Position numbers and translations under genes: made by a program | Shown here: piece by piece, positions 7,196 through 64,000 of the stretch | Layout of the letters: every line of letters starts with the position of its first letter | Numbering within the stretch: position 1 is the stretch's first letter | Notes under the pieces: generated by a model | The model's input: the letters and a program-made list of their open reading frames with translations, nothing else | Told to the model about the DNA's origin: nothing | Databases searched by the model: none | NCBI RefSeq assembly: GCF_014201825.1 | Contig: NZ_JACHFJ010000003.1 | Location: 1 to 64,000 of the forward strand | DNA from: Acidocella aromatica | GTDB lineage: Bacteria > Pseudomonadota > Alphaproteobacteria > Acetobacterales > Acetobacteraceae | Direction: 5' to 3' | DNA length: 64,000 nucleotides

Positions 7196-7273
7196 GCTAG
7201 AAAACCGCGCTCCAAATGCGTGTCGCGGTCCAGGCACTAACCGCCTAGCGGCGTCAGGACAAGCACTGGCGGC

Positions 7274-7465
7274 TTAATGCCCGAGATGGGCGAGCACGAG
7301 CAGGCTGAGGATCAGCGCGATTAGCAGCGGCGGGACAAGCCCGGTTTTCTCGTGGCTATCGTCGGGGTGCGAATACATTTCCGTATCGCCCGGACCGGGG
7401 ATGAAACCCGAACCGAGATGCTTGGCACTCCGATCCCGCAGGAATTTTGCAAATAGGTTCATCAT
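7274..7465 (-). CDS. Small hypothetical membrane protein
   Basis: An open frame of 63 residues starting at one of two adjacent ATGs (MMNLFAKFLRD). It has a polar N-terminal half with a GPGDTEMYSHPDDSHE stretch and a C-terminal hydrophobic helix (GLVPPLLIALILSLLVLAHLGH, given as positions 41-62). It lies 78 bases upstream of cydD on the same strand, so co-transcription is possible. I do not recognise a family. The ribosome site is weak, but the clear tail anchor argues that it is a real protein. A 6-bp inverted repeat (7519-7533) lies upstream and may be regulatory. Confidence 0.5.
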   Translation of the reverse strand: MMNLFAKFLRDRSAKHLGSGFIPGPGDTEMYSHPDDSHEKTGLVPPLLIALILSLLVLAHLGH

Positions 7466-7604
7466 GACACTCACATAAGTGTAATACCGGGAAAATCCAA
7501 AATTTGCACTAACATTTGCGGGCATATTGCCCGTTAATGGGAATAAAACGCCCGATTTCTTGAGAATGTTGCTGTTTTGGCACGTTCCGGCTTGGGGCTG
7601 GGCC

Positions 7605-8378
7605 TTAAGCTGCCGCCGTCCAGGCGAAGTCTCCCGGCCCGGGGCTGGGGCATAGGTATTCCGCCCCTGTCCAGCCCTCATAGGGCAGATTTCGGATGGC
7701 GCGGAACAGGCGGGGGAAGTTCAGTTCCCCCGTTCCCGGCGCGCCCCGGCCCGGATAATCCGAGAATTGGATATGCCCGATCCGCATCAGCCGTTTGGTC
7801 AGCCCTTCTAACACATCCTCGCCCCCGGCGTGGGCGTGGTAGGTGTCGTATTGCAGGGTCAGGTTATCCTTGCCCACGGCGGTCAGCAGCGCGTCCGCAT
7901 CTGGGTAGCCGTTTAGGATGAAGCGCGGATTATCCGCCCGGTTCAGCGGCTCCACCAGCAATTGCACGCCGCGAACGGTCAGCATGTCGGCGGCGAGGCG
8001 GAGGTTTTCCACCAGCACGTCCCAGCACTGCTCCGGCGTTTCGCCCTCGGGCAGGTTGCCCGCCAAACAGTTCACGCGCGGGCAGCCGAGGGTGTTGGCA
8101 TAATCCCCGGCCAGACGCACCCCGCGCAGAAACTCCGCCTCCCGCCCTGGCAGGCAGGCGATGCCCCGCTCCCCGCCCGCGAAATCCCCGGCGGGGATGT
8201 TGATGAGCACGAACTCCACCCCTGCCTTGTGGGCAGCCTCGCGCAGCGTGGCGGCGGGCAGGTCGTAGGGAAACTGCATCTCCACCGCCTTGAACCCAGC
8301 CCTAGCGGCGGCCTGGATGCGCTCCGCCACCGGCAGAGCGGTGAACAGCGTGCTGATATTGGCGGAGAAGCGCAGCAT
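7605..8378 (-). CDS. hyi: Hydroxypyruvate isomerase family TIM-barrel protein
   Basis: A 257-residue single-domain xylose-isomerase-like TIM barrel. Landmarks are MLRFSANISTLF at the start, a metal-site glutamate in LLVEPLN, the YDTYHA strand (about residue 177) and the HIQFSDYPGRGAPGTGE segment typical of Hyi/OtnI. The family converts hydroxypyruvate to tartronate semialdehyde, or isomerises 2-oxo-tetronates. It is two bases downstream of an SDR gene on the same strand, suggesting joint metabolism of small oxo-acids. The C-terminus (GPGDFAWTAAA) is of normal length. Exact substrate unproven. Confidence 0.85.
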   Translation of the reverse strand: MLRFSANISTLFTALPVAERIQAAARAGFKAVEMQFPYDLPAATLREAAHKAGVEFVLINIPAGDFAGGERGIACLPGREAEFLRGVRLAGDYANTLGCPRVNCLAGNLPEGETPEQCWDVLVENLRLAADMLTVRGVQLLVEPLNRADNPRFILNGYPDADALLTAVGKDNLTLQYDTYHAHAGGEDVLEGLTKRLMRIGHIQFSDYPGRGAPGTGELNFPRLFRAIRNLPYEGWTGAEYLCPSPGPGDFAWTAAA

Positions 8379-8380
8379 GG

Positions 8381-9118
8381 TTATCCCCTCCCGATATACG
8401 GCATGGCGGTGGCCATCACCGTCATGAACTGCACATTGGCGGAAAGCGGCATGCTGGCCATGTGCAGCACCGAGGCCGCGGCATGCTCCACATCCATCAT
8501 CGGCTCGGGGGCGATATGCCCATCCGCCTGCATGGAGCCGCGCGCGATCCCGGCGGTCAGATCCGTGGCGGCGTTGCCGATGTCGATCTGCCCGCAGGCG
8601 ATATCATGGGTCCGCCCCTCCAGGGAGAGCGCGCGGGTCAGTCCCGTTACGGCGTGCTTGGAGACGGTATAAGCCACGGCCTGCGGGCGTGGCACATGCG
8701 CCGAGATCGAGCCGTTATTGATGATCCGCCCGCCCTGGGGCGATTGCGCGGCCATCACCCGGAAGGCGGCACGGGCGCATAGGAACATCCCGGTCACGTT
8801 CACCGCCAGGGCGGCGGAGAAGTCGGCCAACGCCACCTCGGGCAGCGGGGTAGGGCGGGAAAAGCTCCCGGCATTGTTGAAAAGCAGGTCCACCCGGCCG
8901 AAACGCGCCACGGTCTCGCTGAACAGACGGTCAACGGCGGCCTCGTCGGTCACATCGGCCACCATCGGCACCACAGCGGGATGTGCCGAAGCCGCGTCCA
9001 CCAGCATTTCCGCCCGCCGCCCGGCCAGCACCACCTGCCACCCCGCCTCGGCCAGCTTGCGCCCGGCGGCACGGCCGATGCCGCTGCCCCCGCCCGTGAT
9101 CACCGCCACCTGCGTCAT
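8381..9118 (-). CDS. SDR-family NAD(P)-dependent oxidoreductase
   Basis: A 245-residue classical short-chain dehydrogenase. It has the cofactor motif TGGGSGIGRA (residues 8-17), NNAG (near 85) and the catalytic Ser/Tyr/Lys set with YTVSKHAVTG. Start ATG 9118 is preceded by AGGAGAG at 8 bases; longer in-frame starts run into the neighbouring gene. It forms a unit with the hydroxypyruvate isomerase gene downstream, so it may reduce a related oxo-acid. It is not the usual tartronate semialdehyde reductase, which belongs to the beta-hydroxyacid dehydrogenase family. Confidence 0.9.
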   Translation of the reverse strand: MTQVAVITGGGSGIGRAAGRKLAEAGWQVVLAGRRAEMLVDAASAHPAVVPMVADVTDEAAVDRLFSETVARFGRVDLLFNNAGSFSRPTPLPEVALADFSAALAVNVTGMFLCARAAFRVMAAQSPQGGRIINNGSISAHVPRPQAVAYTVSKHAVTGLTRALSLEGRTHDIACGQIDIGNAATDLTAGIARGSMQADGHIAPEPMMDVEHAAASVLHMASMPLSANVQFMTVMATAMPYIGRG

Positions 9119-9131
9119 GTTCAGTCTCTCC

Positions 9132-9845
9132 TTACTGCCCGGCATCCACCAGCACACGCCGCCCCGGCGCCCTCTGGCGGACGGGCATGATGCCATGCAG
9201 TTCCTTGGTCGCTTCAACGATGGTCAGCCCCGCCAGTTGCGGCGCCAGCAGCCGGCCGGCGCGTTCGCACAGGGCAAAGCCGCGCAGCATAGGGCTCCAG
9301 CCGCAGGGCGGGGCGAACAGCGCGGGCACATGGGTTTGCACATGCAGGAACAGATTGCCCATCAGCCGGTTGAGCTGGCTCTCGGAATAAGGCTGCCCGT
9401 GGCCGAAGGGCGTGCTCTCGGCATGCGCCCAGATGCCGTGCCGGTTCGGCACCACCACGATCATCCGCCCGTCATCCTTCAGCAGCCGCCAAGCCTCGCG
9501 CAGTATGCGCCTGGCATTGTCCGCCTGCTCCAGCCCATGCACGAGCAGGATGCGGTCGAACATCAGGTCGGGGAAGGGCAGGCCTTCCTCCTCTGCCACG
9601 CAGGCCAACGAGGCCCGCCCCGCTGGCCAGGGGGCTGGTCCCATGTCGCGCGTCGAGGCGGCGATGCAGCGTTCCGCCTGCGTGCGCCACAGCTCCAGAT
9701 ATGGCCCGGTAAATCCCAGCCCAAGCACCGCGCGCCCAGTGCAATCCGGCCAGAGTGCGGCCAGTTTCTGCCGCAGCAATGCGGCGGTCAGCCGTCCCAG
9801 CGGGGTTGCATAAAATCCAGCCGCATCTCGCGCATCGATCGCCAT
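9132..9845 (-). CDS. SAM-dependent methyltransferase (class I-like)
   Basis: A 237-residue protein with a methyltransferase-like arrangement: VLGLGFTGPYLE in the motif I position (a degenerate glycine loop), FDRILLVHGLE at the motif II/III region and LLKDDGRMIVVVPN, which matches the post-motif strand of Methyltransf_11 proteins. The start MAIDARDAAGFY at 9845 gives a 40-base divergent gap to gloB; longer starts would run into the gloB coding region. Proteins of this type commonly sit beside gloB in alphaproteobacteria. The substrate is unknown. Confidence 0.75.
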   Translation of the reverse strand: MAIDARDAAGFYATPLGRLTAALLRQKLAALWPDCTGRAVLGLGFTGPYLELWRTQAERCIAASTRDMGPAPWPAGRASLACVAEEEGLPFPDLMFDRILLVHGLEQADNARRILREAWRLLKDDGRMIVVVPNRHGIWAHAESTPFGHGQPYSESQLNRLMGNLFLHVQTHVPALFAPPCGWSPMLRGFALCERAGRLLAPQLAGLTIVEATKELHGIMPVRQRAPGRRVLVDAGQ

Positions 9846-9885
9846 TGCCCTTATATAGCGCGGCAGACGGAAAGGAGCGACAGAC

Positions 9886-10611
9886 ATGGCGGTGACGGTA
9901 CAGGCGATCCCGATGCTTTCGGACAATTATTCCTGGCTGCTGCACGAGCCGGTGATGGGCAAGACCGCCATCGTGGACCCGGCCGAGGCCGAACCCGCCA
10001 TCGCGGCGCTGGAAAAAGCCGAGCTGCCCCTGGATTTCATCTTCCTCACCCATCACCATGACGATCATATCGGCGGGGTGCCGGAGCTGGTCGCCCGCTA
10101 TGGCGCCAAGGTGGTGGGCAATGGCGCGGATGCCGCGCGCCTGCCCAAGCTGGACATCGCGGTGCATGAGGGCTCAATGGTGGATTTCGGCGCTGCCAAG
10201 CTGCGGGTCATCGAGGTGCCGGGCCACACGCTCGGGCACATCGCTTATTACATCGCCGATGGCGGCGTCTTGCTCCCAGGCGACACGCTGTTCAGCCTGG
10301 GCTGCGGCCGCCTGTTCGAGGGCACGCCCGCGCAGATGTTCGCCTCGCTGGCCAAGTTCGCCGATCTGCCGGATGCCACGCTGGTCTGCTGCGCGCATGA
10401 ATACACGGCTTCCAACGCCAAGTTCGCGCTCACCGTGGAGCCGGATAACGAGGCGCTGCTCGTCCGCGCGGCGGAGGTGGCGGCGCTGCGCGAGAAGGGG
10501 CAGCCGACCCTGCCGGTGACGCTGGGGCAGGAACGCGCGACCAACCCCTTCCTGCGCGCCAAGACGGTGGAGGAATTCACCGCCCGGCGTGCGGCGAAGG
10601 ATAAGTTCTAA
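9886..10611 (+). CDS. gloB: Hydroxyacylglutathione hydrolase (glyoxalase II)
   Basis: A 241-residue metallo-beta-lactamase-fold enzyme. The metal-binding motif THHHDDHIGG (about residues 50-59) is followed by GHTLGHIAY, GDTLFSLGCGR and the late CAHEYT histidine, all typical of glyoxalase II, which hydrolyses S-lactoylglutathione. AAGGAG lies upstream of the ATG. The C-terminal RATNPFLRAK segment is the usual family signature. It is divergent from the methyltransferase gene and shares its stop region with rdgB on the opposite strand. Confidence 0.95.
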   Translation: MAVTVQAIPMLSDNYSWLLHEPVMGKTAIVDPAEAEPAIAALEKAELPLDFIFLTHHHDDHIGGVPELVARYGAKVVGNGADAARLPKLDIAVHEGSMVDFGAAKLRVIEVPGHTLGHIAYYIADGGVLLPGDTLFSLGCGRLFEGTPAQMFASLAKFADLPDATLVCCAHEYTASNAKFALTVEPDNEALLVRAAEVAALREKGQPTLPVTLGQERATNPFLRAKTVEEFTARRAAKDKF

Positions 10612-11192
10612 AAGTTTTTTGACGCTTCCAGCGCGGCCTTGAGCTGCGCGATGGCCTGGGCGCGGTGGCTGATCTTCTCTTTCACCGCGCCGCCCAGCTC
10701 GGCATAGCTCTGCTCGTAGCCATCGGGGATGAACAGCGGGTCGTAGCCGAACCCGCCTGCCCCACGTGGAGCAGTAGCGATCCGCCCGTAAGCTTGGCCG
10801 ATATAGGTGGCGGTGGTGCCGTCCGGCTGGGCGAGGCAGAGCGCGCAGGTGAACCAGGCGCGCCAGTCATTGGCGGCCTCGGCGGCGGCGATGATCCGCG
10901 CGAACGCGCCCGGATAATCCCCGCCTGCGTAACGCGCCGAGAATACGCCCGGCCCGCCGCCAAGTGCCGCCACCGAAAGCCCGGAATCGTCGGCCAGCGC
11001 GGGCAGGCCGGAGGCCTGGGCCGCCGCCAGCGCCTTGATCCGCGCATTGCCGGGGAAGGTGGTGGCGGTTTCCTCCGGCTCGGGCAGGCCAAGCTCGCCG
11101 GCCGAGGTCAGAGAATAGCCGAGCGGCGCCAGCAGGGGGCCGAATTCCTTCAGCTTGCCGGGGTTATGGGTGGCAATGACGAGCTGCTTCAT
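10608..11192 (-). CDS. rdgB: RdgB/HAM1 family non-canonical purine NTP pyrophosphatase
   Basis: A 194-residue protein beginning MKQLVIATHNPGKLKEF, the hallmark nucleotide-binding start of the RdgB/HAM1 family, with ADDSGLSV and GFGYDPLF further along. It removes dITP and XTP from the nucleotide pool. The start is placed at 11192, forming an ATGA overlap with the upstream yqgE gene. Its TAG stop overlaps the gloB TAA stop in a CTAA tetramer. Length and motifs are complete. Confidence 0.96.
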   Translation of the reverse strand: MKQLVIATHNPGKLKEFGPLLAPLGYSLTSAGELGLPEPEETATTFPGNARIKALAAAQASGLPALADDSGLSVAALGGGPGVFSARYAGGDYPGAFARIIAAAEAANDWRAWFTCALCLAQPDGTTATYIGQAYGRIATAPRGAGGFGYDPLFIPDGYEQSYAELGGAVKEKISHRAQAIAQLKAALEASKNF

Positions 11193-11776
11193 GCCCGCCC
11201 CGCCGCGCCGGAGAGCATGCCGGGGTCGATGCCCAGCTTGCGCAGGGCCCGCTGCCATTTGGTGTTGTAGGAGGTGTCGAAGATGATGGCATCATCCGCC
11301 GCCACGCTCAGCCAGGAGTTCTGGCGCATCTCCTGGTCCAGCTGCCCGGCGCCCCAGCCGGTATAGCCCAGCAGCAGCACGGCTTTTTCCGGCCCGCCGC
11401 CCCCGGCCACGGCCTGGAGAATATCGAGATTGGCGCTGAGCGCGCGGGTATCGTCCACTTGCAGGCTGGCATCCGAGAGCCAGTCCGTGCTGTGCAGCAC
11501 GAAGCCGCGCGTCTCATCCACCGGACCGCCCACGCCCAGCGCCAGCTCTCGCTTTGGCGGGCTGGGCTCCACATTGAGCTGGCTCATCAGATCGGCGAAT
11601 TTCGGCGCACGCAGCGGCTGGTTGAGGACAACGCCCATCGCCCCCTCCTCGGTATGCGAGCAGATGAAAATCACGCTCTGCGCGAAACGTGAGTCCCCCA
11701 TCGCGGGCATTGCGATCAGAAGTTGCCCTGTCAGCCAGTCGGGCGGGTTCGCCCGGGAAAATTTTGCCTCCGCCAT
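11189..11776 (-). CDS. yqgE: YqgE/AlgH family protein
   Basis: A 195-residue protein with the family core LTGQLLIAMPAMGD near residues 15-28, ICSHTEEGAMGVVLNQP, and later LGYTGWGAGQLDQEM. The family fold is known but its biochemical role is not settled (AlgH-like regulation has been proposed). The ATG at 11776 is chosen because upstream in-frame sequence crosses the divergent peroxiredoxin promoter region. It is translationally coupled to rdgB by an ATGA overlap. Confidence 0.93.
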   Translation of the reverse strand: MAEAKFSRANPPDWLTGQLLIAMPAMGDSRFAQSVIFICSHTEEGAMGVVLNQPLRAPKFADLMSQLNVEPSPPKRELALGVGGPVDETRGFVLHSTDWLSDASLQVDDTRALSANLDILQAVAGGGGPEKAVLLLGYTGWGAGQLDQEMRQNSWLSVAADDAIIFDTSYNTKWQRALRKLGIDPGMLSGAAGRA

Positions 11777-11890
11777 TGCTCCAGTATATTCTTCGCTGTC
11801 AGCCGGGACCAGCCCTGCCTGGCGCGCTCTCTTCACGGGCCAGGGCAGTTCGTATACGTAGCGGCATCTGCCGAAGGAAGGACCGACAGC

Positions 11891-12370
11891 ATGATTAAGG
11901 TAGGCGACAAGATTCCGGCCATGAAGCTCATGGTGGCAACCGCGGAAGGCCCGCGCGAGGCCGACACCACCGAGCTTCTGGGGCAGGGCAAGGTCGTGCT
12001 GTTCGCGGTGCCGGGGGCTTTCACCCCCACCTGTTCGGCCAAGCATCTGCCGGGCTTCGTCAAGCACGCGGCGGAGTTCAAGGCCAAGGGCGTGGACAGG
12101 ATCGTCTGCATGGCGGTGAATGACGCGTTTGTGATGGGCGCCTGGGGCAAGGACCATAAGGCGCTGGACAACGTGGTGATGCTGGCCGACGGTTCCGCCA
12201 CCTTCACCAAGGCGCTAGGCCTGGAGCTGGACCTGCTGGCCCGCGGCATGGGCGTGCGCAGCCAGCGCTTCGCCCTGGTGGCCGAGGATGGCGTGGTCAC
12301 GCAGCTTTTTGTCGAGGAGCCGGGCGGTTTCGAAGTCAGCCGCGCCGAGGCCGTGCTCGAATCCCTTTAA
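11891..12370 (+). CDS. Peroxiredoxin, Prx5/redoxin type
   Basis: A 159-residue thioredoxin-fold peroxidase. The peroxidatic cysteine is C48 in VPGAFTPTCSAKHLPGF, the diagnostic Prx5/PMP20 sequence; a second cysteine is C73 in IVCMAVND. It reduces hydroperoxides in the cytoplasm with a thiol donor (glutaredoxin or glutathione in the family). AAGGAAGGA precedes the ATG by about 9 bases. It is divergent from yqgE and followed within six bases by a glycosyltransferase gene, probably by read-through rather than function. Confidence 0.94.
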   Translation: MIKVGDKIPAMKLMVATAEGPREADTTELLGQGKVVLFAVPGAFTPTCSAKHLPGFVKHAAEFKAKGVDRIVCMAVNDAFVMGAWGKDHKALDNVVMLADGSATFTKALGLELDLLARGMGVRSQRFALVAEDGVVTQLFVEEPGGFEVSRAEAVLESL

Positions 12371-12376
12371 CCCGCA

Positions 12377-13459
12377 GTGTCTTACACCCTCACGGTCGTC
12401 GTGCCGTGCTACAACGAGCGCGCCAATGTCGCGCCGATGGTGGCAGCCCTCAACAACGCGCTTACCGGCATCGACTGGGAGGTCGTCTTCGTCGATGACG
12501 ACAGCCCGGACGGCACTTCCACCGCCGTGCGGGCCTTGGCGCGCGAGGATGTCCGCGTGCGTTGCATCCGCCGTGTCGGGCGGCGCGGGCTCTCCTCCGC
12601 CGTCATCGAGGGGGCTTTGTCCTCCTCCGCCGATTATGTCGCGGTCATCGATGGCGACATGCAGCACGACGAGACCCGCCTGCCGCTGATGCTGCAAGCC
12701 GTGCAGATCGGCGCGGACATGGCGGTAGGCAGCCGGCATGTCGAGGGCGGGGATTCCGCTGGGCTTTCCTCGCCGCTGCGGGTTAAGCTCTCCGAGACTG
12801 GCATCCGCGTGGCGCAGGCGCTCACCCATACCAGCATCAACGACCCGATGAGCGGGTTCTTCCTGCTCCGGCGGGACCTGTTCGAGCAACTCGCCGGGCG
12901 GCTCACCGGCCAGGGCTTCAAGATTCTGCTGGACCTGATCCTCGCCTCGCCGCGGCGGCTCACCATCGCCGAGATCCCCTACAAGTTCCGCCCCCGCCAG
13001 GCGGGCGAGAGCAAGCTCGACGTGCTGGTGCTGGCGCAATTCGCCGGGCTGCTGATGGACAAGGCCCTGCGGGGGACCGTGCCGCTGCGCTTCATCTCCT
13101 TCGCCCTGGTCGGCGCGTTCGGTGTGTTGGTGAACATCCTGGTGTTGCAGGCTGCGCGCTCGCTCGGCATCGGCTTCGGCACGGCGCAGACCATCGGCAC
13201 CGTGGTGGCGATGATCGCCAATTTCGAGCTGAACAACCAGCTCACCTACCGCGCCCAGAAACTGAAGGGGCCGCGCGCCTGGCGCGGGCTGGTGCTGTTC
13301 CTGGCCGTGTGCAGCCTGGGCGCCTATGCCAATATAGGTATCGCCAAGGCGCTGTACGCCGAGAACGGGCATGGCCTGCTCGCGGGCGCGGCTGGTGCGG
13401 CCGTGGGTGTGGTGTGGAACTACGCCGTCTCCGCCACGCTGGTCTGGCGCGTGCGGTAG
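12377..13459 (+). CDS. Family 2 glycosyltransferase with C-terminal GtrA domain
   Basis: A 360-residue membrane protein. Residues 1-235 form a GT-A domain of the dolichol-phosphate mannosyltransferase type with VVVPCYNERANV, DDDSPDGT and DGDMQHDE. Residues about 240-360 form a GtrA-like four-helix domain. Such fusions transfer a sugar from a nucleotide donor to polyprenyl phosphate and may assist its flipping. It begins with GTG six bases after the peroxiredoxin stop. The next gene, a GT39/ArnT-like transferase that would use a polyprenyl-linked sugar, starts two bases after its stop, so the two probably form one glycan-modifying pathway. Confidence 0.92.
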   Translation: MSYTLTVVVPCYNERANVAPMVAALNNALTGIDWEVVFVDDDSPDGTSTAVRALAREDVRVRCIRRVGRRGLSSAVIEGALSSSADYVAVIDGDMQHDETRLPLMLQAVQIGADMAVGSRHVEGGDSAGLSSPLRVKLSETGIRVAQALTHTSINDPMSGFFLLRRDLFEQLAGRLTGQGFKILLDLILASPRRLTIAEIPYKFRPRQAGESKLDVLVLAQFAGLLMDKALRGTVPLRFISFALVGAFGVLVNILVLQAARSLGIGFGTAQTIGTVVAMIANFELNNQLTYRAQKLKGPRAWRGLVLFLAVCSLGAYANIGIAKALYAENGHGLLAGAAGAAVGVVWNYAVSATLVWRVR

Positions 13460-29530: not shown

Positions 29531-29599
29531 GGCGAACGAATCCCCGCTGCTTGTACCGGAAAGATAATTATCAACACTTCGCTTCAAACAGGGGCATTG

Positions 29600-31957
29600 A
29601 TGACGACTTTTAATGGTACGTATACTTCCGAGGTCACTCTGTCAGCCGGCACGGCGAATGCGACCCTCGGAACTACCGGCGTCATCAATGCCTATGGTCC
29701 GGCGGGGGTTGGTACCATCAATATCAACGGCACGTTAACGCCCGAGATTCTTTCCGCGGCTCTGTTCGCACCTGCCAGCATCACCGCCAACATCACCAAT
29801 CTGGGCACGATTGAGAGCCACGGCACCAATGCCAGTAATTGGTTTGACGCCGGCATTGTGCTCGGCGCGCCGGGCACTGTGATCAATGCCGGGCTGATCG
29901 AGAGCGCGGCGGGCATTTTCGTTGGCGGCGGGCAGGGCTCCACGGGCGCTATGGTCATGAACACCGGGGCGGTCGAGGGTACGGTGTCGGTTGGCATCAT
30001 TCTCACCGGGGCGGGCACGGTGCTCAATGCCGGGAGCATCAGCGGCGTGATGGGCGCGGTGCTGGAGCAGGGCACCAACGCGTCCTATCTCGGCAACGAC
30101 GTAACCGGCGTCATCACGACTTCGGTGGGCGGGGCGCAGGCTGGTTACGCCGTGCAGATGGATGGCGGCGGCACGCTGATGAATGCCGGTATGATCGCGG
30201 GTTATTCGGGCGGTGCGGAACTGCGCGCGCGCAATACCGTCACCGTGTTCAACGCGGGCACGATCGCCAGCACGGGCACAGCTTCCGGCAGTGGGGCGGC
30301 GCTTAGCGTGGGCGAGGACACCATCGCCAATGCCGGGGCCATCATCGTCAATAACGCCGGGGGCGTGATCAGCGGCCAATACGGCATCGAGATCTACCAG
30401 CGCGGCACCTCAGCCAGCCCGGGCACGATGGTGAACACCATCGGCAATGCCGGATTGGTTCAGGGCACGAGGGGAGCAGCCATTGCCGACTGGTCCGGCA
30501 CAGCTGTGCTGGGCAATAGCGGCACCATCCTGTCAACTGGCAGCATCGGCGTGGATCTGCAGAATGGCGGCACGGTATTCGATTCCGGTGTAATCCAGGG
30601 CGCGACCACGGCGCTGTATATGGGCGGTGGCGGAAGCGACCGGCTGGTGCTGGGGGCCGGGGCGTCCTTCGGGGGCAGCATCGCCGTTAATGCCGCCGCC
30701 AATGCCACGCTGGAGCTGGCTTCCAGCAGCTCCGCCGGCACGTTCGACATGGGCGGCACGGTCACCGGGTTCGACAATATCGTGTTCGACACCGCCAGCA
30801 CCTGGACGCTGGAGGGCAATCTTGCCGAACTCGGCGGCGGGGAGATGATCAGCGGCTTCAGCGGCGCCGACACGCTGGTGCTGGAAGGCTTCACCGCCAC
30901 CTCGGACCAGCTGATTCAGCTTGGCGGCACCGATACCTACGCGCTCGACCTCTCCAACGGCTCAAGCACGGTGCAGCTCGACCTTGTTGGCAGCTTCACC
31001 GCCAATGAAATCACCTTCAGCGCCGTTGGGGCGGGGACGGAGATCCATCTCTGCTATCTGCGCGGCACGAACATCCTCACGCCGGAAGGCGAGCGCCTGG
31101 TGGAAAGCTTGCGCGCGGGCGACGAGGTGCTGACCCGCTATGCCGGACCCCAGCGGATCAAATGGATCGGGCGGCAGGATTATGCCGGGCGGTTTATCGC
31201 CGCCAACCCGGAGAAGATCCCCGTGCGCATCCTGGCCGGGGCGTTGGGCGAGGGGCTGCCGGTGCGTGATCTGTCGCTCTCGCCCGGCCATGCGGTGTTG
31301 CTGGAGGAGACGCTGGTGCTGGCGCAGAGCCTCGTCAATGGCGTTACCGTATTGCAGGATGAAGCGCCGGAGTTGGTGGCGTATTATGCCATCGAGCTGG
31401 AGACGCATGACTGCGTGATCGCCGAGGGCGTGCAGGCCGAGAGCTTTGCCGACGGCCCGGGCCTGCGGAACCAGTTCCATAACCTCGCCGAATTCCACGC
31501 TTTGTTCCCCGGTTATGTGGAGCCGGATGAGATCGCCCTCTGCGCCCCGCGCCCCGAGCGTGGCCCGGCGCTGGATGCCGTGTTGCGGTCCGTGGTGGCT
31601 CGCGCGGCGGCGCGCGCGGCGCCGGGGGTGTTGCGAGGCTTTGTGGATCTGGTCGAGGAGGATGGGCTGGTTGAGGGCTGGGCGCAGGACATGGCCAACC
31701 CCGAATTGCCGGTGCTGCTGGAGATCCGGCACGGGGACGAGGTGCTGGGCACCGTGCTGGCCTGCGATCTGCGCGAGGATCTGGCCGCGGCGGGTATTGG
31801 CAAGGGGCGGGCGATGTTCAGCTTCCGCGTGCCCGGCGGGCTGGCGGGCGAGGCGCGCCAGACGATCTCGGTGCACCGCGCAAGCGATGGCGCGATAGTG
31901 CCGCTCTCGGGCGATTGCCGGGCGAGGATCGGTCTTGAGGAAACCCGCGCCGCATAA
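29600..31957 (+). CDS. Hint-domain protein with N-terminal beta-helix repeats
   Basis: A 785-residue protein with three parts. Residues 1-about 470 are Gly/Ala/Asn/Thr-rich with repeated units such as NAGLIESAAGIFV, NTGAVEGTVSVGI, NAGSISGVMG, NAGMIAGYSGG and NAGTIASTG, expected to form a beta-solenoid. At C485 a Hint domain begins (CYLRGTNILTPEGE, then SLSPGHAVLLEE and ETHDCVIAEGV). From about 660 comes a small domain (GWAQDMANPELPVLLEI, REDLAAAGIGKGRAMFSF) that also occurs at 60937-61611. There is no signal peptide, suggesting export by a type I-like or other route. ATG 29600 follows AGGGG; TTG is one codon earlier. Confidence 0.85.
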   Translation: MTTFNGTYTSEVTLSAGTANATLGTTGVINAYGPAGVGTININGTLTPEILSAALFAPASITANITNLGTIESHGTNASNWFDAGIVLGAPGTVINAGLIESAAGIFVGGGQGSTGAMVMNTGAVEGTVSVGIILTGAGTVLNAGSISGVMGAVLEQGTNASYLGNDVTGVITTSVGGAQAGYAVQMDGGGTLMNAGMIAGYSGGAELRARNTVTVFNAGTIASTGTASGSGAALSVGEDTIANAGAIIVNNAGGVISGQYGIEIYQRGTSASPGTMVNTIGNAGLVQGTRGAAIADWSGTAVLGNSGTILSTGSIGVDLQNGGTVFDSGVIQGATTALYMGGGGSDRLVLGAGASFGGSIAVNAAANATLELASSSSAGTFDMGGTVTGFDNIVFDTASTWTLEGNLAELGGGEMISGFSGADTLVLEGFTATSDQLIQLGGTDTYALDLSNGSSTVQLDLVGSFTANEITFSAVGAGTEIHLCYLRGTNILTPEGERLVESLRAGDEVLTRYAGPQRIKWIGRQDYAGRFIAANPEKIPVRILAGALGEGLPVRDLSLSPGHAVLLEETLVLAQSLVNGVTVLQDEAPELVAYYAIELETHDCVIAEGVQAESFADGPGLRNQFHNLAEFHALFPGYVEPDEIALCAPRPERGPALDAVLRSVVARAAARAAPGVLRGFVDLVEEDGLVEGWAQDMANPELPVLLEIRHGDEVLGTVLACDLREDLAAAGIGKGRAMFSFRVPGGLAGEARQTISVHRASDGAIVPLSGDCRARIGLEETRAA

Positions 31958-59081: not shown

Positions 59082-60878
59082 ATGCCTTCTTTAATTGATC
59101 CGCTGGTCTTGCGGGTGCCGGCGGAGCTTGAGATCACGGCGCTAACGCCGCGGCGGGCGCTGATTATCGGTTCCTGCCTGTCGGAAGCCCTTGCTCTGCG
59201 GATGAAAAGCTTGCCCGAGCCGTGCGAGAGCGATTTGTTCCTGCAGGGCACGCCCTTACCGGAACAGCCGCCGCAGCCGGTGGAGGCATATGATTTCCAG
59301 CTGGTGCAGCTTGGCCTGCGTTTCGCCCTGCCTGATTCGGCCTTTGCCCGGCTGGGGCAGATGGATGTTGAAGGCCATGAGCGCCTGTTCGATTTGGCCC
59401 TGGCCAATATGCGCCGCGCTTTTGCCGAGGTGATGCGCTGGAATCAGAAATTCGGCATTCTTACCTTTGTCATCCCCTATCTGGTGCCGATGGCCAATGC
59501 TGTGGGGCGGCTCTTGCCGCGCTACGACCTGCGCAACCCGGTTTATTTCGTCGAGAAGCTGAACGAGGCGATGGCCCGCGAAATGGCGGCCTACAAGAAC
59601 GCCTATTGGTTTGACCTCAACGAGATTCACAGCTTCTACGGCCGCCGCTTTGTGCAGGAGGATGTCTATTCGGCCCTTAACCATGGCAGCTTCATCAGCG
59701 ATTTCGATTACGAGTTCGACCAGAATCGGCTGGAGCCATCGCTGAAGGCGACCGAAATCTACGAGGAAAAGGGGGGTGATCTGTTCGGTGCCGCTTGGCG
59801 GGAACTGGTCGCCATGCTGCGCAGCGTCCGCCAGCAGGACGCCGTCAAGCTCGTTGCCGTGGACCTGGACGATACGCTGTGGCGCGGCATCGCGGGGGAA
59901 ACGGACAATGATGCGATGCCTACCACGGAGGGCTGGCCGAAAGGGCTGTGGGAGGCGCTGCTGTTCCTCAAGCGCCGGGGTATTCTGCTCGCCATCATCA
60001 GCAAGGCGGAAGAGAGCGTGACGCGCGCTGCCTGGGAGCGGATCGTTGGCCGCAACCTGAAGCTTGAGGATTTCGCCGCGTGGCGGATCAACTGGAACCC
60101 CAAGCCGCAGAGCCTCGCAGAGATCATGGCCGAGGTGAATGTGCTGCCAGGCAATGTCCTCTATGTCGATGACAGTCCGGTCGAACGCGCGGCTATCAAG
60201 GCGGCCTTCCCCGAGGTGCGGGTACTGGGCGGCACGCCGCTCACTTGGCGTCGCCTGCTGTTGTGGGCGGCGGAAACCCAGCGCGCCGAGGTGACGGCGG
60301 AATCGGCCCAGCGCACGGAGATGGTGCAGGCCCAGATTCAGCGTGAGCAGCAACGCCAAGCGATGACGCGGGATGAGTTCCTCGCGTCGCTCAAGCTGCA
60401 CATGAAACTGTTCACGATCAGCGATGTCTCACACCCGCGTTTCTCCCGCGCCCTGGAGCTGATTAACAAGACCAACCAGTTCAACACCACCGGCAAGCGC
60501 TGGACGCTGGAGGAGGCCGCTTCCGCTTTTGCCGCGGGGAGCGTGTTTCATGTTTTTGAGCTTGCGGACATTTATACCGATTACGGGCTGGTGGGTGTCC
60601 TGATCACTACGGGGAACCGCATTGGACAGTTCGTGATGAGCTGCCGCGTGCTGGGGCTGGGGGCCGAGGTGGCGGCGGTCGCGGAAGTGGTTGGCTGGTT
60701 GCGCCGTCAGGCGGAACAGGACGTTTTCGCGGATATGGAGGAGACCCCCCGCAACCTGCCCTGCCGGCATGTTTATGCGGGGCTTGGCTTCAGCGCTGCG
60801 CCCGGTGGCTGGGTGCTGGCAAATGCCAATATACCGGCCGTGCCGGCGCATATCCAATTCGTTCAGGATGAGGCGTAG
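59082..60878 (+). CDS. HAD-IIIC (FkbH-like) phosphatase domain protein
   Basis: A 598-residue protein. An N-terminal SGNH-like region (1-about 250) precedes a HAD domain with nucleophile D261 in AVDLDDTLWRGIAGE, LAIISKAEESV and LYVDDSPVERAAIKA. A C-terminal GNAT-like part runs from about residue 430 (RFSRALELINKTNQFNTTGKR). FkbH-like enzymes load glyceryl or other groups onto carriers or sugars in polyketide and surface-glycan pathways. No carrier protein is nearby, so a glycan-modifying role in this cluster is more likely. Confidence 0.85.
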   Translation: MPSLIDPLVLRVPAELEITALTPRRALIIGSCLSEALALRMKSLPEPCESDLFLQGTPLPEQPPQPVEAYDFQLVQLGLRFALPDSAFARLGQMDVEGHERLFDLALANMRRAFAEVMRWNQKFGILTFVIPYLVPMANAVGRLLPRYDLRNPVYFVEKLNEAMAREMAAYKNAYWFDLNEIHSFYGRRFVQEDVYSALNHGSFISDFDYEFDQNRLEPSLKATEIYEEKGGDLFGAAWRELVAMLRSVRQQDAVKLVAVDLDDTLWRGIAGETDNDAMPTTEGWPKGLWEALLFLKRRGILLAIISKAEESVTRAAWERIVGRNLKLEDFAAWRINWNPKPQSLAEIMAEVNVLPGNVLYVDDSPVERAAIKAAFPEVRVLGGTPLTWRRLLLWAAETQRAEVTAESAQRTEMVQAQIQREQQRQAMTRDEFLASLKLHMKLFTISDVSHPRFSRALELINKTNQFNTTGKRWTLEEAASAFAAGSVFHVFELADIYTDYGLVGVLITTGNRIGQFVMSCRVLGLGAEVAAVAEVVGWLRRQAEQDVFADMEETPRNLPCRHVYAGLGFSAAPGGWVLANANIPAVPAHIQFVQDEA

Positions 60879-60936: not shown

Positions 60937-61611
60937 ATGCGTGACGCTGGCGGACGGGAGCTGGATAAGACCGTGAATTTACGTGGCCACCTCGACGTGC
61001 TGCTCTCGTCGGGATTCATAAATAGCTGGGCTTGTGACAATGACCGGCCATTGCAGCCTTTGACCATTGCCGTGCTGAGCGGTGGCACCGAAATAGCCTT
61101 CGCCATTGCCAATCATTATCGCCCCGACCTTGCCGATGCCGGATGCGGCACGGGCTGGTGCGCGTTCCGCGGGCGGCTTGTGGTTCCCGTTAGCCAGCTG
61201 CGGGGGATGCCGCTCTCGCTCCACGAGGTCGGTACCGGACAGGTGTTGCATAATGTGCCGGAGCTGCCCGAACTTGACATGCCCGTTCCTCCCGCCAGCA
61301 CGGTCGGGGACATTATCGCCCAGGACCCTACGCTGCTCGGCGATATCAGCCGCTTGAAAGGTTGCGGCCGGGTGCTCGACGCTTTTATCCGCCAGCACGG
61401 CGTGGAGGAGTTTGTCGGCGCCGCCTTCCTTTATGTACTCAATCGACCGGTCGACCACCCTGCGCTGACCGCCTATACGAACCTCATCCGCCAGGGGCAC
61501 CAGGAACCGTTGAATGTGCTGCGCGAGCTGGCGGACAGCGCGGAGTACCGGGCGAAGCCGGGAACCCTGGTAGCGCCGTGCCATCCATCTTTTCCGTTCC
61601 GGGACAGCTGA
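60937..61611 (+). CDS. DUF4214-like protein with surface-glycan-type domain
   Basis: A 224-residue protein. Residues 25-75 (INSWACDNDRPLQPLTIAV, then YRPDLADAGCGTGWCAF) match the C-terminal domain of the Hint protein at 29600-31957. The second half (FLYVLNRPVDHPALTAYTNL, RELADSAEYR) resembles DUF4214, a helical repeat in surface and glycan-related proteins. The start could be ATG 60937 or GTG 60973. It follows the FkbH-like gene and is three bases before the next gene. Confidence 0.7.
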   Translation: MRDAGGRELDKTVNLRGHLDVLLSSGFINSWACDNDRPLQPLTIAVLSGGTEIAFAIANHYRPDLADAGCGTGWCAFRGRLVVPVSQLRGMPLSLHEVGTGQVLHNVPELPELDMPVPPASTVGDIIAQDPTLLGDISRLKGCGRVLDAFIRQHGVEEFVGAAFLYVLNRPVDHPALTAYTNLIRQGHQEPLNVLRELADSAEYRAKPGTLVAPCHPSFPFRDS

Positions 61612-61614
61612 GCC

Positions 61615-62712
61615 GTGCTGTTCGACAAAGGGCTTGCCGTTTCCCTGCCTGCTCGTGAATTGGCTGAGGCCACGCCCGAAGGCGCGCTGCTGGATGCCGA
61701 GGCGGTGCTGCGCCAGCGTCTCTCCAGTGGGTTGCGCGCAGCGGTGCAGTTGCTGCGCGACCATGTCGAGGCGGTGGGAGGACGGCTCGTCTTCATCCTG
61801 CGGTCTGAGATCTTTACTCACGGCGAGGCGCTGGCCTGGCTCAATGCCCGGCTGGGGGAGGTCGAGGATCATCTCAGCCTCTCCGATGGCGTGGTCGTGC
61901 ATCTGTTGCCTGGTCGGCGAAACCATTTGTTCTTCTACCGGAGCAGCCAAGCCGAGGCGGTGGCGGCGCTCAGGCGCCTTGCCATGCGCGCGCCGGAGTT
62001 GGCGCCGCAACTGGTGTCGCAGGTCAATAGCTGCCTCGGCTTTGGTGAAGGTAAGGCGAAATACACGCCGCGCCCGGTTCTGCTGCAAGCCACCGGTCAG
62101 GCTTTTGCAGGCATGGCGTCTTTCCGCGAGTTCTACTTCAACGATTGCGGCATCGAGGACAGCGTGGCCCGCAACGAGCTGGCGGGCGACCTGCCAGCGG
62201 ATAAACTCGCCCTGTATGGCGAGGTCACCTACATTCCGGTCACGGGCGTGGCGGCGGCCGACCCGGCGTTCAATCTCTATGTGGCCCAGCGCATCCGCGC
62301 GGTGCTGCGCACGCCTGAGCGGTTGCTGTTGCTTGGCGCGCCGCTGGCCGCAGGCAAGGAAGACACGGTGCCCCGCATGCTGACCCGCTTGCTGCGCGGG
62401 CTGCTGGAGCATGGCGGCGTGTTGCCGCGCGCGGTTCTGGGCAACGTCATCATCGCCACCGCGCTGCTGGCCCCCGCCGATCTGCCTGACGCCAAGCTCG
62501 AGTTGGTAATCCCAGAGGGATTCGAGTTCTGGCGTCTGCCGCGTGCCTATTACAGCCGTTTCTCTCGGATTTCGGTGACGGTCCCCCGCCATCGCGCCAT
62601 GCCGCCGGAGTTGCAGGCGATGCTGACAACGGCCTTCGGGGCCCGCCCCCAGATCGAGCGGCTTGATCCGCCGCCCCGCAGCGCCCGCGCCGGGAGTGAC
62701 GGGGATGAGTAA
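61615..62712 (+). CDS. Unrecognised protein in glycan-type cluster
   Basis: A 365-residue protein starting with GTG three bases after the preceding stop. It has no signal peptide or membrane segment. Segments such as LSDGVVVHLLPGRRNHLFFY, VNSCLGFGEGKAKYTPRP, and the C-terminal EGFEFWRLPRAYYSRFS look well ordered, but I recognise no family. The C-terminal ~20 residues are Pro/Arg/Asp-rich and overlap the glycosyltransferase start by eight bases. Position between a DUF4214-like protein and a GT4 enzyme suggests a role in polysaccharide or glycoprotein assembly. Confidence 0.6.
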   Translation: MLFDKGLAVSLPARELAEATPEGALLDAEAVLRQRLSSGLRAAVQLLRDHVEAVGGRLVFILRSEIFTHGEALAWLNARLGEVEDHLSLSDGVVVHLLPGRRNHLFFYRSSQAEAVAALRRLAMRAPELAPQLVSQVNSCLGFGEGKAKYTPRPVLLQATGQAFAGMASFREFYFNDCGIEDSVARNELAGDLPADKLALYGEVTYIPVTGVAAADPAFNLYVAQRIRAVLRTPERLLLLGAPLAAGKEDTVPRMLTRLLRGLLEHGGVLPRAVLGNVIIATALLAPADLPDAKLELVIPEGFEFWRLPRAYYSRFSRISVTVPRHRAMPPELQAMLTTAFGARPQIERLDPPPRSARAGSDGDE

Positions 62713-63835
62713 AACCAAGCGCCGCACGTTGAAAACGCCCGCTATTGCCCGTGGCGCGAAGCCCAGGCTCACCGTGGATGTGGGGCCGCTGCTGGAGACG
62801 TTCTGGACCGGCATTCCGGTGTTCACCCGCCGTCTGGTGCAGGCTTTGCTGGCCGATGGCCGGGTCGATCTCTCCTACTGCTTCAACCTGACCGAGTTGC
62901 CCGCCGCCAAGGTGCATGCCGCGCTGACGATGGGCACCGGGGCCTTCCTGCGCAATCATTATGAGGCGCATGCCTATGCCTCGTATCGCCCGGCCGATAC
63001 CAGTGCGCCGCTGCTCTACCCTTCTAACAAGAAGGTGGCGGGTGTCTCGCCGCGCGAGGCCAGCGTGGTGCACGACATCAGCACGCTGGTGATGCCTGAG
63101 AACCACGAGACTGCGAATGTTGACCACCATATGGACAGTCTGGCCCAGGAGCTGGCCTCCGACGAACTGGTACTTTGTGCCTCCGAGGCGACACAGGCGG
63201 CGCTGACCACTTATTTCCCCTCTGTCGCGGCCAAAACGAGGATCATGTACCAGTATGTGGACTGGCCAGAGGGCTTCGCGCTCATGGACCACAACCTGCC
63301 GCGCCCGGAGCTGGGGCGTTATGCGGTGGTGGTGGGAACGATCGAGCCGCGCAAGAATCTCTCCATCCTGCTGCATGCGTTGAGTTTGCCGGAGTTGCGG
63401 GAGTCGGATCTTAAGTTCGTGATCATCGGCAAGGTGGGCTGGCTGGTTGAGGGTTTCCTTGAAGCGCTCACCCTGGCCCAGCGCGAGCGGCTGATCTTTA
63501 CCGGCTTCGTCTCGGAATTCGTCAAATACCGGCTGATTGCCCATGCCGAATTCATGGTGTTCCCCTCGTTGTACGAGGGGTTTGGCATCCCGGCGCTGGA
63601 GGCGTTGAGCCTGGGCAAGCCCGTGTTGGCGGCGCGGACTTCGAGCTTTCCCGAGGTGATTGGTAAGGCGGGAGTGTATTTCGATCCGCTCTCGGTTACC
63701 GAATTCGCTGCGGCGCTGGCCGAGATCGAGGCGCCAGCGCGGTTGGTGGAGTTGACGACGCATACGCGCGTGCAGGCGGCCCAATTTACACCGGCGCGTA
63801 TGGCTTCGCCGGTGTTGGAGTGGCTTGTGGCATGA
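62705..63835 (+). CDS. GT4-family glycosyltransferase
   Basis: A 376-residue GT-B enzyme. The basic N-terminus precedes VDVGPLLETFWTGIPVFTRR; the C-terminal Rossmann domain has VVVGTIEPRKNLSILL (about residue 205), FTGFVSEF and the nucleotide-sugar site VFPSLYEGFGIPALEAL. It transfers a sugar with retention onto a growing glycan. It starts inside the preceding gene and overlaps the following one through ATGA, so the cluster is one operon. Confidence 0.92.
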   Translation: MSKTKRRTLKTPAIARGAKPRLTVDVGPLLETFWTGIPVFTRRLVQALLADGRVDLSYCFNLTELPAAKVHAALTMGTGAFLRNHYEAHAYASYRPADTSAPLLYPSNKKVAGVSPREASVVHDISTLVMPENHETANVDHHMDSLAQELASDELVLCASEATQAALTTYFPSVAAKTRIMYQYVDWPEGFALMDHNLPRPELGRYAVVVGTIEPRKNLSILLHALSLPELRESDLKFVIIGKVGWLVEGFLEALTLAQRERLIFTGFVSEFVKYRLIAHAEFMVFPSLYEGFGIPALEALSLGKPVLAARTSSFPEVIGKAGVYFDPLSVTEFAAALAEIEAPARLVELTTHTRVQAAQFTPARMASPVLEWLVA

Positions 63836-64000
63836 GCAACGATGTGAAGCCGGCGGCGGAGGCGTTGGAGCGTCAAGTGCAGGCGGAGCAGATTCTGGCT
63901 TCTGAGCCGGCGAATGTCGGGGCGTTGGTGGAGCTTGGCCGCTCGGCCAATGCCCAAGGCGACCATGGAGCCGCGCTACGGGCTTTTGCCGCCGCTGCCG
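63832..64000 (+). CDS. TPR-like protein, start of gene cut by window edge
   Basis: ATG overlaps the glycosyltransferase stop (ATGA). The 56 residues visible (MSNDVKPAAEALERQVQAE, ILASEPANVGALVELGRSA, QGDHGAALRAFAAAA) show the alternating helix pattern of a tetratricopeptide repeat. Such proteins often accompany glycosyltransferases in O-glycosylation clusters. The rest lies beyond the window. Confidence 0.6.
   Translation, partial: MSNDVKPAAEALERQVQAEQILASEPANVGALVELGRSANAQGDHGAALRAFAAAA

What the first reader, a model, noticed from the sequence alone, without database searches (positions are those of the whole stretch)
61615..62712. Unrecognised 365-residue protein inside a tight glycan operon
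It lies between a DUF4214-like protein and a GT4 enzyme with overlapping starts and stops, is soluble, and has no recognisable family. It is the strongest candidate here for a new function in glycan or glycoprotein assembly.
Basis: inference. Interest (0 to 1): 0.6.

Follow-up and report, generated by a model that had tools for sequence, protein, structure and literature searches.

The report
Odd partner of a sugar-transfer enzyme
A protein with no known family turns out to be the middle member of a tightly kept three-gene set, and its predicted shape looks like a sugar-transferring enzyme that may have lost its own activity and now serves the true enzyme encoded next to it.

Summary
The 365-aa ORF at 61615-62712 is a real gene with no Pfam or NCBIfam match. 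It belongs to a family found sparsely in Acetobacteraceae. In 17 of 17 homologous cassettes (16 named contigs) it sits, same order and strand, between a small DUF4214-type protein and a GT4 glycosyltransferase. A confident AlphaFold2 model (pLDDT 86, pTM 0.85) remotely resembles two-domain GT-B glycosyltransferases. Strict conservation lies almost wholly in the N-terminal (acceptor-side) domain. The C-terminal (donor-side) domain is less conserved, the reverse of three active GT-B families used as controls. The GT4-type E-x7-E/GxP donor motif is in 18 of 18 GT4 partners and 0 of 18 targets. A second, divergent layout (DUF4214-type, unknown middle protein, GT4) was complete in 17 of 19 loci examined; relatives of its middle protein occur in 22 of 299 family genomes, three of them borderline, and it may be a very distant relative of the target. 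Best reading: a non-catalytic GT-B-like subunit serving the adjacent GT4, working like GtfB with GtfA, plus a third scaffold or targeting subunit. An active enzyme of a new GT-B family remains a strong rival. The acceptor is unknown.

The parts
60937..61611 (+). DUF4214-type protein, 224 aa: N-terminal beta-sandwich (residues about 15-107) plus C-terminal helical DUF4214 / phycobilisome-linker-like domain. The true start may be GTG 60973 (inference from where the homologues begin).
   Evidence: DUF4214 16.1 bits, below cut-off; 18 of 18 members match DUF4214 at E<=1; profile hits phycobilisome linker chains, best 7.8e-11; model pLDDT 92.5, pTM 0.82.
61615..62712 (+). The finding: 365-aa protein of a family without a model, predicted GT-B-like fold, N-domain about 1-150, C-domain about 201-352.
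62705..63835 (+). GT4 glycosyltransferase, 376 aa, with intact EPRK and E-x7-E motifs; overlaps the target gene by 8 bases.
   Evidence: PF00534 5e-26; R216, K217, E291, E299 invariant in 18 rows; E-x7-E with GxP in 18 of 18.
63832..64000 (+). Start of the next gene (runs beyond the window; 946 aa in L009 counted from an earlier start codon): TPR repeats plus a Gly_transf_sug domain; 4-base overlap with the GT4. A relative lies near the cassette in 1 of the 16 named contigs (L018), so it is not part of the core module.
59082..60878 (+). FkbH-type HAD-IIIC protein, upstream neighbour; no relative in the flanks held for the 16 named contigs, so context only.
   Evidence: TIGR01686 204.7 bits; no FkbH hit in L017-L032 at E<=1e-4; flanks up to 10 kb, shorter in some.

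Best explanation
The protein is the GT-B-like accessory subunit of a three-protein glycosyltransferase module. Shown: the three genes are kept together in fixed order in all 17 type I cassettes examined, and the predicted model's best structural matches are two-domain GT-B proteins. Inferred: the neighbouring GT4 does the chemistry with a nucleotide sugar. The 365-aa protein pairs with it and uses its highly conserved N-terminal domain (the acceptor side in GT-B enzymes) to hold or present the acceptor, while its own donor-side C-domain has lost sugar-nucleotide chemistry. The DUF4214-type protein (beta-sandwich plus phycobilisome-linker-like helices) acts as scaffold or targeting subunit. It works like GtfB with GtfA of Gram-positive adhesin glycosylation, without being a member of that family. 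The acceptor (surface polysaccharide, lipid-linked glycan or a protein) is not known.
For: Fixed cassette DUF4214-type / target / GT4 in 17 of 17 homologous cassettes in 16 named contigs. The GT4 subfamily at E<=1e-80 occurs in 6 of 200 family genomes: five carry the target family, and the sixth, G128, carries the type II module. That second, divergent arrangement keeps the same three parts in 17 of 19 loci examined, the other two being cut by contig ends. Model pLDDT 86.4, pTM 0.85. The first 20 Foldseek PDB rows are glycosyltransferases of GT-B type, best 4.6e-5. VIA Z 9.9 to a UDP-GlcNAc 2-epimerase over 251 residues (rmsd 5.8) and 9.3 to Asp1 over 262 residues (rmsd 4.7), rows spanning model residues 4-354. 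Of 18 invariant columns 17 lie in residues 1-150 (M1, the start codon, among them) and one in the C-domain; without the early-ending L031 row 18 against 2. The C/N ratio of mean conservation is 0.80 against 1.08 (MurG), 1.09 (GT9) and 1.13 (the GT4 partner). E-x7-E followed by GxP: 18 of 18 GT4 partners, 0 of 18 targets. Known precedent: GtfA is a GT4 enzyme and GtfB a catalytically inactive, acceptor-binding partner (PMC12809243 passages; PMC6973325 passages).
Against: With the L031 row set aside the C-half keeps some polar positions: T/S210 (17 of 17), D/E216 (17 of 17), R272 (16 of 17), W306 (17 of 17), and H at position 300 in 14 of 17 (the window has P), which could form an unusual donor site. 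Plain E-x7-E spacing without the GxP does occur in the C-half of 8 of 18 targets, the window included (E296/E304), but at scattered places shared only by the near-identical pair L024/L032. The middle protein of the second module, a possible distant relative, has many conserved polar C-half residues, as an enzyme would. MurG, an active enzyme, also has more invariants in its N-domain (7.1 vs 2.5), so only the mean-conservation ratio separates it. E-x7-E is a mark of retaining GT4-like enzymes, and many active GT-B families lack it (recalled). Foldseek TM-scores are low (0.29-0.40 in the first 20 rows), so the fold match is remote. No complex was modelled and no acceptor was found.
Confidence: 0.45

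Rival explanations
1. It is an active glycosyltransferase of a new GT-B family. It and the GT4 add two sugars in turn, and the DUF4214-type protein is a scaffold or the acceptor. The conserved N-domain residues (R63, E65, H86, D91, H104, E128, Q136, N138) include the catalytic base of an inverting enzyme.
For: GT-B-like fold; a set of conserved charged and polar residues in the N-domain; conserved R272, D216 and W306 in the C-half; other glycosyltransferase or sugar-metabolism genes near some cassettes.
Against: Donor-side domain less conserved than the acceptor-side one, the reverse of three active controls; no E-x7-E with GxP; one-to-one pairing with one GT4 in every type I cassette examined.
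Confidence: 0.37
2. It is a GT-B-fold enzyme that is not a glycosyltransferase, such as a sugar-nucleotide 2-epimerase-like enzyme that makes the donor for the GT4.
For: The best VIA row is a non-hydrolysing UDP-GlcNAc 2-epimerase, Z 9.9.
Against: Rows within Z 1 are tied and include many transferases and Asp1. No Pfam or NCBIfam epimerase model matches any of 18 members.
Confidence: 0.08
3. The C-terminal half is a decayed EAL (cyclic-di-GMP) domain, and the protein is a regulator of the glycan locus.
For: One of 18 members matches the EAL model at E 0.018; it is L020, 14.9 bits against a cut-off of 31.3, residues 217-281 (10 of the 18 members scanned again). One of 18 matches CsrD at E 0.11.
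Against: Scores of this size are expected by chance in 18 searches (about 0.3 hits at E 0.018). The model's best structural matches are GT-B folds spanning both domains.
Confidence: 0.03

Closest known systems
GtfB of the GtfA/GtfB O-GlcNAc transferase (accessory Sec systems of Gram-positive bacteria)
   Same: Gene pair of a catalytic GT4 with a second partner protein; the target's model is GT-B-like; the partner's proposed job (acceptor binding without chemistry) fits the conservation pattern.
   Different: No Pfam or NCBIfam model for GtfB or DUF1975 matches any member; a DUF4214-type gene is part of every type I cassette examined; alphaproteobacterial; no accessory Sec gene among the neighbours that were scanned (a part of the flanks).
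Asp1 (accessory secretion protein 1, PDB 5vaf)
   Same: Third-ranked structural match, Z 9.3, rmsd 4.7, 262 residues. Recalled, from no call: Asp1 is a GT-B-like protein without transferase activity.
   Different: 8% identity; no Asp1 sequence model matches; no SecA2/Asp2/Asp3 seen among the neighbours that were scanned.
GT4 glycosyltransferases (the adjacent gene)
   Same: GT-B-like two-domain arrangement.
   Different: No sequence relation by profile comparison (hhalign probability 0.1); E-x7-E with GxP absent.
EryCII/EryCIII (activator plus glycosyltransferase)
   Same: A glycosyltransferase that needs a partner protein which is not itself a transferase (abstract of PMC3391682).
   Different: EryCII is a P450 homologue, not a GT-B protein.

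Membership tests
GT-B fold superfamily | Predicted model whose best structural matches are two-domain GT-B proteins over both domains | tested here: met
   AF2 model pLDDT 86.4, pTM 0.85; the 50 VIA rows shown are proteins I recognise as GT-B folds, Z 9.9 to 7.9, spanning 4-354; Foldseek best 4.6e-5 but TM only 0.29-0.40 in the first 20 rows. Remote, predicted, not solved.
GT4 family | Sequence match to GT4 models (PF00534, PF13692) | tested here: not met
   0 of 18 members match at E<=10; hhalign against the GT4 partners gives probability 0.1.
GT4 family | E-x7-E donor motif followed by GxP | tested here: not met
   0 of 18 targets; 18 of 18 GT4 partners.
GtfB (partner of GtfA) | Encoded next to a catalytic GT4 | tested here: met
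   17 of 17 cassettes plus the window.
GtfB (partner of GtfA) | DUF1975 domain and GtfB sequence model | tested here: not met
   No such match in 18 members at E<=10. That the libraries hold these models is recalled. DUF1975 as a feature is taken from PMC6973325.
GtfB (partner of GtfA) | Accessory Sec locus with a serine-rich repeat adhesin | tested here: inconclusive
   Not seen among the neighbours scanned by Pfam, which are only part of the flanks; SecA2 and Asp genes were not searched for by themselves.
GtfB (partner of GtfA) | Binds the acceptor and lacks transferase activity | not testable with these tools
   Needs protein biochemistry.
DUF4214 (upstream protein) | Match to PF13946 | tested here: met
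   18 of 18 family members at E<=1, best 6.2e-8; the window's own copy is below the curated cut-off (16.1 vs 23.2 bits).
Anti-phage defence systems | Match to a PADLOC model | tested here: not met
   None of the three window proteins matches at E<=0.01.
EAL domain proteins | Match to PF00563 over its cut-off | tested here: not met
   One of 18 members at E 0.018, 14.9 bits against 31.3.

The most novel reading that the evidence does not exclude
Acetobacteraceae carry a self-contained three-subunit glycosylation machine, in two gene arrangements: a GT4 enzyme, a decayed GT-B protein that presents the acceptor, and a DUF4214 scaffold. It arose independently of the Gram-positive GtfA/GtfB system and glycosylates a still unknown protein or surface acceptor in the cytoplasm.
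Probability: 0.25. Interest if true: 0.75.

Novelty: new variant of a known kind. Interest (0 to 1): 0.52.

Why it matters
Glycosyltransferase partner proteins that have a GT-B shape but no chemistry are known from few systems (recalled), and why an active enzyme needs one is not settled. A second, unrelated lineage of such a pair, with a DUF4214 protein and in two genetic arrangements, would give an independent test of what the partner does. It would also give DUF4214, a domain of unknown function by its Pfam name, a concrete context. If instead the protein is active, it founds a new glycosyltransferase family.

Tried and rejected
Sequence searches that led nowhere: Pfam and NCBIfam for the target and for 18 members (10 members again), PDB sequences by single protein and profile, PADLOC, plasmids by tblastn (no match), first scan of genome contigs with the single protein (none). 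A phylum-wide draw with the profile found only the window's own genome (1 of 299).

Considered and rejected: recent duplicate of the adjacent GT4 (hhalign probability 0.1); defence system (the PF20706 'GT4-conflict' match of the GT4, 27.5 bits, just passes its cut-off of 26 but is far below PF00534 with 91.7); EAL regulator; RTX-type adhesin acceptor beside the cassettes (one repeat pattern, three or more per frame: none in the cassette loci of both types; three scattered over 22 kb in the window).

The conservation argument was weakened by its own control. Mean number of columns at 94% or more, N against C: target 18.7/3.3, MurG 7.1/2.5, GT9 8.1/17.0, GT4 partner 42.0/54.5; mean ratios C/N 0.80, 1.08, 1.09, 1.13. 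So MurG's invariants lean to the N-domain too; only the mean ratio separates it. In that of 18 target rows were usable (the L031 row, whose frame ends early, fell out), 30 of 30 MurG loci (of 56 matching genomes), 23 of 30 GT9 loci (of 40 matching genomes) and 18 of 18 GT4 rows; domain borders were approximate and the families differ in overall divergence (mean identity 0.41, 0.32, 0.43, 0.63). The L031 row lowers C-domain counts; one search repeats them without it (18 N, 2 C invariants).

The link between the target family and the type II middle protein is suggestive only: hhalign probability 3.8%, P 0.011; score 28.3 reached by 0 of 100 column shuffles but by 2 of 100 block shuffles. For that alignment 16 of 19 type II loci were used; L152 (gene split), L157 (partial) and L164 (contig end) were left out. 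The three borderline genomes (G070, G235, G280) were not fetched.

Literature: no paper in the held library joined DUF4214 with glycosyltransferase (0 papers), and four papers mention DUF4214 at all (listing only). Searches gave, among others, the GtfA/GtfB, Asp and EryCII papers. Passages were read of PMC7948813, PMC12809243, PMC5578698 and PMC6973325, and the abstract and outline of PMC3391682. This does not show that the family is undescribed elsewhere.

Full report
THE OBSERVATION. No Pfam or NCBIfam family matches it even at E<=10, nothing credible in the PDB by sequence (best E 0.81), and no transmembrane segment is evident (maximum 19-residue hydropathy 1.73). The gene order is FkbH-type (59082-60878), DUF4214-type (60937-61611), target, GT4 (62705-63835), then a TPR-plus-Gly_transf_sug protein that starts at 63832 and runs out of the window. 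The target overlaps the GT4 by 8 bases and the GT4 overlaps the next gene by 4, but the DUF4214-type gene ends 3 bases before the target starts; the claim of overlap on both sides is half right. Further downstream lie two GT4-type genes and a GDP-mannose pyrophosphorylase-type gene, a heptosyltransferase-type GT9 gene and an LptF/LptG gene: glycan context.

IT IS A REAL FAMILY. With the protein, 7 of 299 genomes of the window's family match at E<=0.001, the window's own included; 1 of 38 in its genus, itself; with profile A1, 7 of 299 in the order, one of them a fragment at a contig end, and 1 of 299 in the phylum, itself. A profile-guided scan of named genomes gave 16 contigs: 15 are labelled Acetobacteraceae, Rhodospirillales, Roseomonas, Falsiroseomonas, Pararoseomonas or Roseococcus, and one is a MAG labelled Acidobacteriia. 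One contig (L018) holds two copies, so there are 17 homologues. The 18 proteins align with 18 invariant columns. The sparse occurrence within the genus suggests gain by transfer or repeated loss (inference).

A FIXED THREE-GENE CASSETTE. In 17 of 17 homologous cassettes the order is DUF4214-type, target, GT4, all on one strand. Pairwise distances of the three proteins run closely together (r 0.94-0.96; linked genes share history, so this is no proof of contact). The GT4 subfamily at E<=1e-80 occurs in 6 of 200 family genomes. Five of these have the target. The sixth, G128, led to a second arrangement: a DUF4214-type gene on the opposite strand, then a 413-aa unknown protein and the GT4, the last two overlapping. 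The DUF4214-type match there is clear (hhalign 1.8e-17). Relatives of the 413-aa protein occur in 22 of 299 family genomes, three of them borderline at E 4e-4 to 6.4e-4. Of the 19 such loci examined (G128 and 18 others), 17 hold all three parts in the divergent layout; the other two end at contig borders. No genome is on both the and the list of matches. Is the 413-aa protein related to the target? The profile comparison is weak (probability 3.8%, P 0.011) but collinear over the N-domain (SxP, PE-I/M/L-F, H, G/K-x-x-N), above 100 of 100 column shuffles and 98 of 100 block shuffles; the target profile against the GT4 and DUF4214-type profiles scores 15.1 and 17.1, in the range of the shuffles. 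With the shared position I take distant homology as more likely than not, not shown.

FOLD. AlphaFold2 on the 18-sequence alignment gave pLDDT 86.4 and pTM 0.85. Foldseek against the PDB: the first 20 rows are GT-B-type glycosyltransferases, best 4.6e-5, with low TM-scores of 0.29-0.40, perhaps because the two domains do not superpose together (inference); from row 21 on other folds are mixed in. The VIA second look gave Z 9.9 to 7.9 for the 50 rows shown, all proteins that I recognise as GT-B folds, including UDP-GlcNAc 2-epimerases, Asp1 (Z 9.3, rmsd 4.7, 262 residues), SenB, BshA and trehalose synthases, spanning model residues 4-354. The tool's own note puts the usual best Z of unmatched models at 7-8, so this is moderate support made stronger by its uniformity. 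The viral library lists glycosyltransferases among its first rows. The DUF4214-type protein models as a beta-sandwich plus helices (pLDDT 92.5); no PDB fold match for it stands out, but its helical half matches phycobilisome linker chains by profile (best 7.8e-11).

WHERE THE CONSERVATION LIES. Of 18 invariant columns 17 are in residues 1-150 (one is the start codon) and one in 201-352; near-invariant polar residues are S10, R63, E65, T68, H86, D91, H104, E128, S135, Q136, N138 against D216 and W306 (position 64, mostly proline, is serine in the window). Without the early-ending L031 row the count is 18 against 2 (P271, W306), and columns at 94% or more are 27 against 9. The ratio of mean conservation, C-domain over N-domain, is 0.80 for the target and 1.08, 1.09 and 1.13 for MurG, GT9 and the GT4 partner. 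The E-x7-E motif followed by GxP is in 18 of 18 GT4 partners and in 15 of 16 type II GT4 stretches examined (16 of the 18 type II loci with a GT4), but in 0 of 18 targets and 0 of 16 type II middle proteins. Plain E-x7-E spacing without GxP occurs in 8 of 18 targets at scattered places, 296/304 in the window. In GT-B enzymes the C-domain binds the sugar nucleotide and the N-domain the acceptor (stated for GtfC in PMC12809243).

MECHANISM. The best reading is a GT-B-like subunit that no longer handles the donor but keeps an acceptor-side surface, paired with the GT4. The precedent is GtfA (GT4) with GtfB, described as a catalytically inactive chaperone and as the acceptor-binding component (PMC12809243 passages; PMC6973325 passages). 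The DUF4214-type protein would be scaffold or targeting subunit (inference from its linker-like domain). Steps shown: cassette, fold prediction, conservation asymmetry, absence of the GT4 motif. Steps inferred: physical pairing, acceptor binding, lack of activity, role of the third protein.

AGAINST THIS. R272 (16 of 17), D/E216 (17 of 17), T/S210 (17 of 17), W306 (17 of 17) and an H at position 300 in 14 of 17 (not in the window) remain in the C-half, and the type II middle protein keeps many polar C-half residues. MurG's invariants also lean to its N-domain (7.1 vs 2.5). E-x7-E is not needed by all GT-B enzymes (recalled). So an active enzyme of a new GT-B family is a serious rival; I put 0.45 on the partner model and 0.37 on the active enzyme.

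MEMBERSHIP. Not a GT4, not GtfB by its defining sequence domain (DUF1975), not Asp1 by any sequence model, not a PADLOC defence protein, not an EAL protein. It may work like GtfB; it is not filed as one.

NOVELTY. No sequence model searched here and no paper found in the held library describes it. I rate it a new variant of a known kind: a GT4 with a GT-B-shaped companion, but a new lineage with an extra constant subunit and two gene layouts.

Noticed in passing
window 29597-31957 (+); also L042, L043, L044, L047, L048, L050, L053, L059: The N-terminal beta-sandwich of the DUF4214-type protein also occurs behind the Hint_2 domain (PF13403) of self-processing proteins, two of them with a GH5 cellulase domain; all 9 proteins scanned, out of more than 100 matches listed, carried Hint_2. 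Its role there is unknown.
   Followed up: partly
L126, L147-L164: A second module in Acetobacteraceae: divergent DUF4214-type gene, unknown 400-500 aa protein with conserved motifs (PE-x-F, HPF, PWN, W(V/L)(E/D)), and a GT4. The one middle protein scanned has no Pfam match over its cut-off.
   Followed up: partly
L152 about 5979-13396: In genome G062 the type II middle gene is split by about 7.4 kb of other DNA, apparently an insertion.
   Followed up: no
L027 (CAIRSA010000062.1): A contig binned as Acidobacteriia carries the whole cassette, with the target least like the window's (24% identical); transfer between phyla or a binning error.
   Followed up: no
L022 5418-9141, L024 7884-9032 and relatives (cluster c3): 11 proteins in 7 loci lie upstream of the DUF4214-type gene; the three scanned have no Pfam match. 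The sequence looks like a GT-A enzyme of the GNT-I kind (recalled, not tested).
   Followed up: no
L009 9768-12675 (window contig position 66768-69675): ORFs just downstream of the TPR-glycosyltransferase gene have much lower third-position GC (0.36-0.42 against about 0.7-0.8 around), as in recently acquired DNA.
   Followed up: no
L031 about 10831: The target gene of Roseomonas nepalensis S9.3B ends its frame early, with the C-terminal part missing; a broken copy or a sequencing error.
   Followed up: no
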